Shown here: positions 5,194 to 6,936 of the stretch, in pieces
How the letters are laid out: each line of letters starts with the position of its first letter
How positions within the stretch are numbered: the first letter of the stretch is position 1
NCBI RefSeq assembly: GCF_024339125.1
Contig: NZ_CP101417.1
Location: 1,798,001 to 1,862,000, forward strand
From: Xanthomonas hortorum
GTDB taxonomy: Bacteria > Pseudomonadota > Gammaproteobacteria > Xanthomonadales > Xanthomonadaceae
Direction of reading: 5' to 3'
DNA: 64,000 nucleotides
The notes under the pieces: model-generated
The model's database searches: none
What the model was told of the DNA's origin: nothing
What the model saw: the letters and a program-made list of their open reading frames with translations, nothing else
Translations under genes and position numbers: made by a program

Positions 5194-5318
5194 GCGCCCT
5201 CGACCCGCTCGGCTTGGAACATCCAGATTGCGCTGAAGTTCAATATCTCGTTCGCCTTGAGAGGTAATTGAACGGTGCGGATACGTCAGGTGTAAAGCGG
5301 CTGATCTGCGGCCTGGTT

Positions 5319-5430
5319 GCAGGGCCCTTGCCCGCCCACCCTCGCGGGACACGCCGCAAGTACGTCCATGTAGGCTCTTACGCGGCATCCATGCCGCGTA
5401 AGGTCCCGCGACGGTGGGCGGGCAAGGACC
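5319..5430 (+). repeat. Structured repeat, body type A (copy A1)
   Basis: A 112-bp element. The outer stem pairs CCTTGCCCGCCCACC with GGTGGGCGGGCAAGG, then TCGCGGGAC with GTCCCGCGA, giving about 25 bp with one mismatch. Inside are an asymmetric strand and the hairpin CTTACGCGGCAT/ATGCCGCGTAAG. Other copies are at 31885, 32092 and 32299, plus the IS-split copy at 5569/6880. This copy carries an intact, unoccupied IS target (5366-5381). Confidence 0.9.
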
Positions 5431-5568
5431 CGTCGAGTTGATCGGTGTGCGGAGTTTTCAACAAGCATCCCGCAAACTGGCTGGCCCCGTGTCCTGTACT
5501 CAATAAAGCAATCAGCAAACTGTCTGGTGCGGTGAGGGCATCGCGCCCTCGACTTCTTCGAGTTTGCT

Positions 5569-5623
5569 GCAGGGCCCTTGCCCGCCCACCATCGCGGGAC
5601 ACGCCGCAAGTACGTCCATGTAG
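5569..5623 (+). repeat. Body A, left half, split by IS insertion
   Basis: These 55 bases are the left half of an A body and end at the AG core of the IS target (CCATGTAG, 5616-5623). The missing right half resumes at 6880. Joined, the two halves give exactly 112 bp, the length of the intact copies, so the IS insertion removed nothing. Confidence 0.9.
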
Positions 5624-5747
5624 CAACTGTGTTGATCAGGACCTCAACCCGCGACCTTTGAGCGGTTTCCTTCAGGCGCGTTCATCGGTAGGTGCCGGCC
5701 GCTGGCCGGCACGCTTTTTTGCGTTTGCGCATGGCCGTCAAATGCGC

Positions 5748-6671
5748 TCAGGCGGGCTGCATGGCGGCTCTTTCATCGCGCACGCGCGCATTGAGGATGA
5801 CCAGCATCTTGCGCATCACCGCCACAAGGGCGACCTTGCCCTCCTTGCCGCGTGCCCGCAGCGCTCTGTAAAAATCGCGCAGACGTGGCTCGTGCCGAGC
5901 TGAGGACATGGCCGCCATATACAGCGCCTGTCGGATGTCGGCTCGGCCTCCGCCAATCCCCCGTTTACCTCGCATCGCGCCGCTGTCGCGCGAGAGCGGG
6001 GCAACGCCAACCAATCGGGATATCTGCTTTCCGCTGAGCGTCCCAAGCTCTGGTAACCGGCACGCCAGCACGGCCAGCAGCACCGGACCGACCCCTTTGA
6101 GCGTCTTCAACGCAGCCAGGTGCGGTTGCTCGGTGAGTAGCGTCTTCAGCTGCCCGGCGATCAGTTTGTCTAACCGCGCCACACTGCGCACAAGCTGGTT
6201 CACGTTGCCCTGCAGCAGCTTGCGCAGCGCTTTTTCCGCAACCTGCAGCAGCTGCTGCCTTGCTGTTTTCAACAGATCCACCAGTTGCCGACGGGCACGC
6301 ACATGCTCGCCCAGATCGCGCTGCCATGGTTCCAGTGGAACATACTGATGGAGCTCCATCTTCTCGGCCATGCAGGCCAACATGGCGGCGTCCAGCCGGT
6401 CGGTCTTGGCCAGTCCCAAACCGTTGGCCAAGTTGCGTGCCCGTTGCGCATTGACGCGCGCCACCGGCAATGCGGCGTGATGCAAGGCATCCAGCGCTGC
6501 CAGCTCGTAGCCCCCGGTCGCCTCCAGCACCACCTGCCGCACCGACAGCGTATTCAGCCAATCGACAAGCTTCCGATGACCGCCTGCGGTGTTGGTGAAC
6601 TGACGGGTCTGGCCTCGAAAAACCGCAACGTCAAGAGAGTGTTTGCACACATCGATCCCGATTCCGCTCAT
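5748..6671 (-). CDS. IS110-family DEDD transposase (bridge-RNA recombinase)
   Basis: Protein of 307 aa, normal for the family. The N-terminal RuvC-like acidic residues are visible: Asp7 in GIDVCK, Glu50 in LEATGGYE, and Asp91/Asp94 in KTDRLDA. The C-terminal Tnp domain carries KTLKGVGPVLLAVL (188-201) and the RDSG motif with the likely catalytic Ser229, followed by the RGKRGIGGGRADIRQALY block. IS110 recombinases cut and join DNA at sites chosen by a bridge RNA from the element's own end. All key residues are present, so the protein should be active. Its frame is intact and it is the only protein of the element. Confidence 0.95.
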   Translation of the reverse strand: MSGIGIDVCKHSLDVAVFRGQTRQFTNTAGGHRKLVDWLNTLSVRQVVLEATGGYELAALDALHHAALPVARVNAQRARNLANGLGLAKTDRLDAAMLACMAEKMELHQYVPLEPWQRDLGEHVRARRQLVDLLKTARQQLLQVAEKALRKLLQGNVNQLVRSVARLDKLIAGQLKTLLTEQPHLAALKTLKGVGPVLLAVLACRLPELGTLSGKQISRLVGVAPLSRDSGAMRGKRGIGGGRADIRQALYMAAMSSARHEPRLRDFYRALRARGKEGKVALVAVMRKMLVILNARVRDERAAMQPA

Positions 6672-6696
6672 GGGAAATCTCCGCTAGGCTAGAAAT

Positions 6697-6849
6697 GTCG
6701 AGAGCTCCCTCGCCTGCCCAGTCTTATCGTTTCGAGTGTCACCTCGGGCAACTGTTCGGGCGAATCAAGGGAGAATCCGGCGTGGGTACCAAGCTACACG
6801 GCGATCGCTGAGATCCAGGCTCTCACGGTGGCCCACGCCGGCTCTCGAC
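6697..6849 (-). ncRNA. Predicted IS110 bridge RNA
   Basis: On the minus strand the region folds by eye into two loops closed by a 9-bp stem, GTCGAGAGC (6841-6849) with GCTCTCGAC (6697-6705). Target loop: stem CGGCGTGGG (6832-6840) with CCCACGCCG (6778-6786), holding guides GTGAGAGCCT (6817-6826) and CCGTGTAG (6794-6801). Donor loop: stem CGCC/GGCG around an inner CGAG/CTCG hairpin, with guides ACAGTTGC (6748-6755) and GATAAG (6723-6728). The target guides match the A repeat that holds the element, and the donor guides match its two ends. Transcript limits are inferred. Confidence 0.8.
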
Positions 6850-6879
6850 ACCTAAACTGCCAGATTCCGAACAGATAAG

Positions 6880-6936
6880 GCTCTTACGCGGCATCCATGC
6901 CGCGTAAGGTCCCGCGACGGTGGGCGGGCAAGGACC
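6880..6936 (+). repeat. Body A, right half, split by IS insertion
   Basis: Right half of the A body interrupted at 5623. It begins at the target sequence GCTCTTAC, contains the inner hairpin and the right arm of the outer stem, and runs into the usual flank (GACCAGTGGAGATGGTCGG). Confidence 0.9.

What the first reader, a model, noticed from the sequence alone, without database searches (positions are those of the whole stretch)
5569..6936. IS110 element whose encoded bridge-RNA target guides match the repeat it sits in
Seen directly. The 1256-bp element splits a 112-bp A repeat at an AG (minus-strand CT) core. Its upstream non-coding end, on the minus strand, forms a hairpin (stem CGGCGTGGG/CCCACGCCG) with GTGAGAGCCT on one side and CCGTGTAG on the other. 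The repeat on the same strand reads GTAAGAGCCT and then, overlapping on CT, the complement of CCATGTAG here or CCGTGTAG elsewhere. Only two positions differ at the occupied site, and both would form G:T wobbles. This is the left-guide/right-guide layout known for IS621-type bridge RNAs. Inference: the element targets this repeat family through its RNA.
Basis: partly seen in the sequence, partly recalled or inferred. Interest (0 to 1): 0.93.

Follow-up and report, generated by a model that had tools for sequence, protein, structure and literature searches.

The report
RNA-guided insertion sequence homing to repeats
A small bacterial jumping gene carries an RNA whose two guide stretches match the repeated DNA it lands in, and its relatives with different guides land in different DNA that fits those guides; this is a new member of the recently discovered bridge-RNA insertion sequences, and an already catalogued small RNA appears to be read from the opposite strand of the same RNA gene.

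Summary
Confirmed. Window 5622-6877 (minus) is an intact IS110-group element (307-aa DEDD recombinase, CT core). The genome has five copies, each in a different copy of one hairpin repeat, cut at the same CT. Relatives give the best test: among 127 element copies from this genus and family, guides and insertion sites change together (left guide matches at least 5 of 6 positions in 101 of 116 copies, background about 4%; right guide at least 7 of 8 in 57 of 69, background about 3%; no shuffle reached the observed fit). Other lineages hit REPs and attC-like sites by the same rule. This is known IS110/IS621 biology: a new member of a known kind. The less expected point: the RNA gene is Rfam sX15, an sRNA family, modelled on the opposite strand. 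A -10-like TANNNT box before the sX15 start recurs in 22 of 27 lineages, and ISPpu9 has a proven antisense RNA in this place. So sX15 is probably antisense to the bridge RNA; this needs strand-specific RNA data.

The parts
5622..6877 (-). IS110-group insertion sequence, 1256 bp
   Evidence: five near-identical copies with different outer flanks
5748..6671 (-). IS110 DEDD recombinase, 307 aa; D7, E50, D91, D94 and S230 shared with IS621
   Evidence: PF01548, PF02371; IS621 structure 8wt6, E 2.6e-25
6697..6851 (-). bridge RNA (5' end near 6851; exact ends inferred)
6817..6826 (-). left target guide GTGAGAGCCT
6794..6801 (-). right target guide CCGTGTAG
6748..6755 (-). left donor guide ACAGTTGC
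   Evidence: equals the element's right end
6723..6728 (-). right donor guide GATAAG
   Evidence: complements core plus left end CTTATC; in some relatives it changes with the left end
5622..5630 (-). left donor = right end of element plus CT core (ACAGTTGCT)
6874..6879 (-). CT core plus left end of element = right donor (CTTATC)
6878..6887 (-). left target GTAAGAGCCT in the repeat
5616..5623 (-). CT core plus right target (CTACATGG) in the repeat
5569..5623 (+). one half of the interrupted hairpin repeat
6878..6936 (+). other half of the interrupted hairpin repeat
5318..5436 (+). intact copy of the target repeat beside the element; folds as one long DNA hairpin
   Evidence: -51.3 kcal/mol, z -9.7
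6697..6854 (+). Rfam sX15 match, opposite strand to the bridge RNA
   Evidence: RF02234, 170 bits, gathering score 55
6685..6690 (+). TAGGCT, candidate -10 box of the antisense sX15 transcript, 6 bases before its start
   Evidence: TANNNT in 22 of 27 cluster representatives
6854..6859 (-). CAGTTT, candidate -10 of the bridge RNA; its -35 TTGCTT forms only when the two ends join
   Evidence: TTG(CT/AC)T, 17 bases, YANNNT in 12 of 14 lineages with both ends known

Best explanation
An IS110-group, IS621-like insertion sequence. After excision the circle joins its ends (right end, CT, left end), which assembles a promoter for an upstream non-coding bridge RNA. The RNA's first internal loop pairs with both strands of the target (left guide GTGAGAGCCT, right guide CCGTGTAG); its second loop pairs with the joined ends of the element (ACAGTTGC, GATAAG). 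The recombinase exchanges strands at CT and inserts the element, in one orientation, into a hairpin repeat whose exact target sequence still occurs 125 times in the genome, an abundant and probably harmless landing site. Shown by sequence: anatomy, five insertions at one position, guide/site match, guide/site covariation in relatives. Inferred from IS621: the circle, RNA binding and catalysis.
For: Five of 5 copies at the same CT of the repeat with different outer flanks; the five IS110 recombinase genes found in the genome are these. Left guide, 26 of 28 guide clusters: own site 6.1 of 9 matches, sites of other classes 4.1, other clusters of the same class 5.3; 0 of 100000 shuffles as good; true pairing best of 5040 class permutations (7 classes); right guide best of 120 (5 classes), and over 14 clusters 7.2 of 8 against 5.3, 0 of 20000 shuffles. 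By locus: 101 of 116 with at least 5 of 6 (background about 4%), 57 of 69 with at least 7 of 8 (background about 3%). Inside the hairpin-repeat class the right guide's TGTAG/TGGAG follows the site's: T-T 21, G-G 4, T-G 2, G-T 0 loci, Fisher p 0.0009; unique combinations 7, 4, 2, 0, p 0.021. Right-guide mismatches over 33 unique pairs are wobble-compatible for the sense RNA in 17 cases and for the antisense RNA in 1, with 14 transversions. Donor guides match the ends, with matching changes in some relatives (GAGAAG 2 loci, CACAAG 9 loci). Catalytic residues shared with IS621.
Against: No expression, binding or recombination data. Four of 116 copies match poorly. In the class table two classes fit another class's sites slightly better than their own on the left side (C-rich guides: attC-like 5.4 against own 5.2; GATCCC guides: C-rich 6.2 against own 6.0) and the GTAGGA class fits its own only at 4.8 of 9. 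Left-guide mismatches show no wobble bias (35 sense, 31 antisense; 12 to 12 in the inner positions). Left-guide positions -9 and -8 match at about chance or below (10 and 19 of 58). The last base of the left donor guide does not match the core. The right donor guide matches the left end at 6 of 6 in only 51 of 127 loci, 5 in 51 and 4 in 25.
Confidence: 0.95

Rival explanations
1. The recombinase itself recognises the repeat (sequence or hairpin shape); the RNA match is a by-product, or the element copied guides from its surroundings by chance.
For: The repeat is a strong hairpin, and many relatives also sit in palindromic DNA (REPs, attC-like sites).
Against: Guide and site change together across 26 guide clusters. 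Elements with recombinases only about 58% identical but the same left guide hit the same repeat. Within one repeat class a single guide base follows the site.
Confidence: 0.03
2. The copies spread by homologous recombination between repeats (gene conversion), not by targeted insertion.
For: The flanks shared by the five copies are the repeat itself.
Against: Relatives with other guides sit in other site classes at the position that fits their guides, which repeat recombination does not predict.
Confidence: 0.02
3. The functional RNA is sX15 on the + strand, and the minus-strand bridge RNA is not made.
For: Rfam models the + strand, a -10-like box precedes it, and the attC-like group folds better on that strand (-79.7 against -68.4 kcal/mol).
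Against: The guide order fits the IS110 rule only on the minus strand. Right-guide wobbles are 17 to 1 for the minus strand. A junction promoter points the right way. Three of four groups fold better on the minus strand; columns with G-U against A-C are 41 to 25 over all pairs and 14 to 11 over pairs common to both strands, a weak lean.
Confidence: 0.03

Closest known systems
IS621 (E. coli), PMC11208160
   Same: DEDD recombinase with the same catalytic residues, RNA in the left end, two loops, CT core, REP-like target, junction promoter (abstract, section 12 and passages read)
   Different: 31% protein identity; different guides; the target is a longer hairpin repeat; covered by the sX15 model on the opposite strand
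ISPpu9 (Pseudomonas putida), PMC8450116
   Same: IS110 element, 7 of 7 copies in a REP with an AG direct repeat, antisense sRNA (Asr9, about 180 nt) complementary to the recombinase 5'-UTR, its -10 overlapping the ribosome-binding site (abstract, section 16 and passages read)
   Different: Asr9 was described before bridge RNAs were known and is reported to raise, not lower, recombinase translation; ISPpu9 also has a second sRNA, Ssr9; its sequence was not compared here
Rfam RF02234 sX15
   Same: The element's left-end RNA gene matches it at 170 bits
   Different: Modelled on the opposite strand and, in the papers listed by my searches, not seen linked to an insertion sequence
IS1111-group seekRNA elements, including attC-targeting ISKpn4 and ISPst6 (PMC11187229)
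   Same: RNA-guided targeting, some at attC sites (passages read)
   Different: In the IS1111 group the RNA lies downstream of the recombinase gene and the guide order is reversed; here it is upstream, with IS110 order

Membership tests
IS110 group of the IS110 family | DEDD_Tnp_IS110 plus Transposase_20 domains | tested here: met
   67.8 and 58.9 bits, both over the cut-offs
IS110 group of the IS110 family | Catalytic D, E, D, D and serine | tested here: met
   D7, E50, D91, D94 and S230 invariant with IS621, ISEc32 and an Enterobacter relative; that these are the catalytic ones is recalled
IS110 group of the IS110 family | Long non-coding end upstream of the recombinase | tested here: met
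   206 bp upstream against 126 bp downstream
IS110 group of the IS110 family | RNA with a target loop matching both sides of the site | tested here: met
IS110 group of the IS110 family | RNA with a donor loop matching both ends of the element | tested here: met
   weaker for the right donor guide in relatives
IS110 group of the IS110 family | Promoter formed by the joined ends | tested here: met
   by sequence only, 12 of 14 lineages at exactly 17 bases (13 of 14 with 15-19)
IS110 group of the IS110 family | Circle formation, RNA binding, recombination | not testable with these tools
   needs experiment
IS1111 group | RNA downstream of the recombinase, reversed guide order | tested here: not met
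Rfam sX15 (RF02234) | Score over the gathering threshold | tested here: met
   170 against 55 bits
Rfam sX15 (RF02234) | Transcribed from the modelled strand | tested here: inconclusive
   conserved TANNNT at a fitting spacing; no RNA data; original paper not held
RAYT-linked REP (for the target repeat) | Repeat flanks the genome's REP-associated Y1 transposase | tested here: not met
   the one Y1 transposase gene found is flanked by a GTAGGAGCGCGC-type REP instead

The most novel reading that the evidence does not exclude
The sRNA family sX15 is a conserved antisense transcript of IS110 bridge RNAs, fired from a promoter inside the integrated element that abuts the recombinase's ribosome-binding site. 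It would be made when the element is integrated and its own junction promoter is absent, and would control either bridge-RNA availability or recombinase translation, as Asr9 does in ISPpu9. The two would define a general class of anti-bridge RNAs.
Probability: 0.45. Interest if true: 0.7.

Novelty: new member of a known kind. Interest (0 to 1): 0.5.

Why it matters
It adds a well-supported natural case of bridge-RNA targeting, with many guide/site pairs in one bacterial family, including hairpin repeats, REPs and attC-like sites, usable as natural recombination systems. It gives a meaning to the genomic place of the sRNA sX15 and makes a testable prediction: bridge RNAs can be opposed or modulated by a built-in antisense RNA.

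Tried and rejected
Tested and not supported: the target repeat as the REP of the genome's RAYT. Strand test by G-U against A-C pairs on one alignment of 73 RNAs: undecided, 24 against 18 cells, 7 against 8 columns. By subgroup, after leaving out 15 named loci that I took for degenerate: 41 against 25 columns over all pairs, 14 against 11 over pairs common to both strands; the attC-like group leans the other way (13 to 15 and 7 to 10, and a better antisense fold), and the group labelled GTAGGA held a misplaced row of the hairpin-repeat class. Register-free left-guide statistic: significant but compressed (6.1 against 5.1), so an anchored version was used. Antisense box in five more distant plasmid-borne elements: near the start codon in 2 of 5 (Enterobacter, ISEc32), only elsewhere in IS621, none in 2; no conclusion outside the family. 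One half of the interrupted repeat alone does not fold significantly. The genome-contig scan found 4 loci, 3 of them duplicates of loci fetched later, the fourth without the RNA.

Rows dropped: of 138 RNA hits, 132 were long enough to use; 2 had no left-end motif, leaving 130; 3 were duplicate loci, leaving 127; 5 had N in the site, leaving 122; 6 had no guide anchor, leaving 116; 69 of 127 had a readable right end. The cluster tests were run before the duplicates were removed (125 rows in 28 clusters, one representative each; 26 with an anchor; 14 with a right end). Of the 81 RNA places, I did not fetch 12 (9 in G026, one each in G018, G019 and G029). From the list, I fetched 60 regions, not all. 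The left-end motif list was set by eye after looking at the loci. Class labels were set by me from the left site; 6 of the 22 copies labelled GTAGGA REP and 10 of the 26 labelled attC have no readable right end.

Full report
Observation. The element is 5622-6877 on the minus strand, 1256 bp, with core CT repeated at 5622-5623 and 6878-6879 (AG on the plus strand). It encodes one 307-aa protein with both IS110 domains; D7, E50, D91, D94 and S230 are invariant with IS621, ISEc32 and an Enterobacter relative, and the closest solved structure by sequence is IS621 (8wt6, E 2.6e-25).

Own genome. Five full copies exist, and each match includes both repeat halves. Outer flanks differ, so they are five separate sites, all cut at the same CT. 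A domain search finds five IS110 recombinase genes, the same five. The exact 16-base target CCRTGTAGGCTCTTAC occurs 125 times uninterrupted, the reversed control 0 times; the guide's own sequence with up to two mismatches gives 134 sites against 1. The intact repeat next to the element folds as one long DNA hairpin (-51.3 kcal/mol, z -9.7). It is not the REP of the one RAYT-like gene found in this genome, which is flanked by a GTAGGAGCGCGC-type REP (compared with Table 1 passages of PMC2817692).

RNA. The minus-strand RNA has an outer stem and two stem-loops. Loop 1 holds the target guides. Passages of PMC11208160 give the IS621 rule: left guide equals the top strand of the left target with the core, right guide is the complement of core plus right target, likewise for the donor. 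The minus-strand RNA obeys it at all four places, apart from two wobbles in the target guides and the last base of the left donor guide.

Relatives. Rfam sX15 (RF02234) matches this RNA gene at 170 bits, 21 of 35 genomes of the genus and 62 of 297 genomes of the family, 42 of them over the cut-off; 0 of 14 control genomes match. I fetched 125 regions, which with the 4 gave 127 distinct element copies, the five own ones included. They fall into 28 guide clusters and several target classes (of 122 with a clean site): the hairpin repeat 44, attC-like 26, GTAGGA-type REPs 22, a C-rich site 14, a Stenotrophomonas-type REP 9, GATCCC 4, single sites 3. The labels are mine, from the left site; all 16 GTAGGA-class copies with a readable right end continue CTCCTACA.

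Covariation. Over 26 clusters, anchored left guides match their own site at 6.1 of 9 positions, sites of other classes at 4.1 and other sites of their own class at 5.3; no shuffle of 100000 was as good, and the true class pairing is the best of 5040 (left) and of 120 (right). Not every class fits best by itself: C-rich and GATCCC left guides fit another class's sites slightly better than their own, and GTAGGA left guides reach only 4.8. By locus, 101 of 116 left guides match at least 5 of 6 inner positions against about 4% of CT-ending background words; 57 of 69 right guides match at least 7 of 8 against about 3%. Misses: 4 of 116 left guides match 3 or fewer, 1 of 69 right guides matches 5. 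Within the hairpin-repeat class, TGTAG or TGGAG in the guide equals that of the site in 25 of 27 loci. Members of a class are related, so shuffles overstate independence; the class-level tests are the fairer ones.

Strand. Right-guide mismatches are wobble-compatible for the minus-strand RNA in 17 cases and for the plus-strand RNA in 1; left-guide mismatches show no bias (35 to 31). Joined ends give TTG(CT or AC)T, exactly 17 bases, then YANNNT in 12 of 14 lineages (13 of 14 if 15-19 bases are allowed); the TTG is absent before the core in all 14 integrated copies looked at. Structure-based tests were undecided or weak, and one group leans the other way.

sX15. Rfam models the plus strand. Six bases before its start (6697) lies TAGGCT, and TANNNT starts 9 to 15 bases before the corresponding point in 22 of 27 cluster representatives (one cluster had too short a stretch); the rate in the antisense of the recombinase start region is 0.0007 per position, a background from coding sequence and therefore only rough. 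The five without it (L080, L092, L098, L101, L142) have a recombinase match that is fragmentary, broken or absent. No clear -35 was seen. ISPpu9 has a proven antisense RNA, Asr9, complementary to the recombinase 5'-UTR, whose -10 overlaps the ribosome-binding site. I infer that sX15 is the same kind of RNA and that both are antisense to bridge RNAs; a sequence comparison with Asr9 was not made. The original sX15 paper (Schmidtke 2012, recalled) is not held.

Literature. Insertion of IS110 elements into REPs is long known (ISPpu9 7 of 7, ISPpu10 7 of 7, ISPa11 6 of 6; PMC1525189 passages). Searches for sX15 (23 papers), IS110 with REP and Xanthomonas (3 papers), Xanthomonas with IS110 and bridge RNA (1 paper), bridge RNA with antisense and IS110 (7 papers, 6 listed) and Xanthomonas sRNAs (39 papers, 15 listed) showed no title or abstract start that links sX15 to an insertion sequence or describes an antisense bridge RNA. 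I opened few of them; one Herbaspirillum paper lists sX15 in a table without comment (passages). Only open-licence papers are held, so this is weak evidence of novelty.

Verdict. The finding is right, and the mechanism is the known IS110 bridge-RNA mechanism. Its main additional value is the guide/site series in relatives and the sX15 link.

Noticed in passing
L125, L126, L123, L128, L133, L135, L137, L139, L141: A branch of sX15-type IS110 elements inserts into sites that I recognise, from recalled consensus, as integron attC (between CTTAATTCAG and GCGTTAGGC); left and right guides match the site. A left box RYYYAAC 45-111 bases away was found in 5 of 10 distinct sites printed. Known attC-targeting elements in the passages I read are of the IS1111 group.
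   Followed up: partly
L109-L117: Elements inserted in sites such as CCACGCATGGCGTGGATCT/ACT, which matches the Stenotrophomonas REP AGTAGATCCACGCCATGCGTGGAT of PMC2817692 Table 1.
   Followed up: partly
window 31932, 32139, 32346: Three further target-repeat copies at 207-bp spacing (from coordinates).
   Followed up: no
L055 (= L046): The left-end sequence CTTATCTGTTCGGATT occurs twice in a row at the insertion point, as if an element had inserted next to a remnant of an earlier copy.
   Followed up: no
L168: The one Y1 (RAYT-like) transposase gene found in the genome is flanked by GTAGGAGCGCGC-type REPs.
   Followed up: yes
L081-L085: In genome G011 the element copies are bordered by runs of N, and some by duplicated element-end sequence, perhaps an assembly effect.
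   Followed up: no
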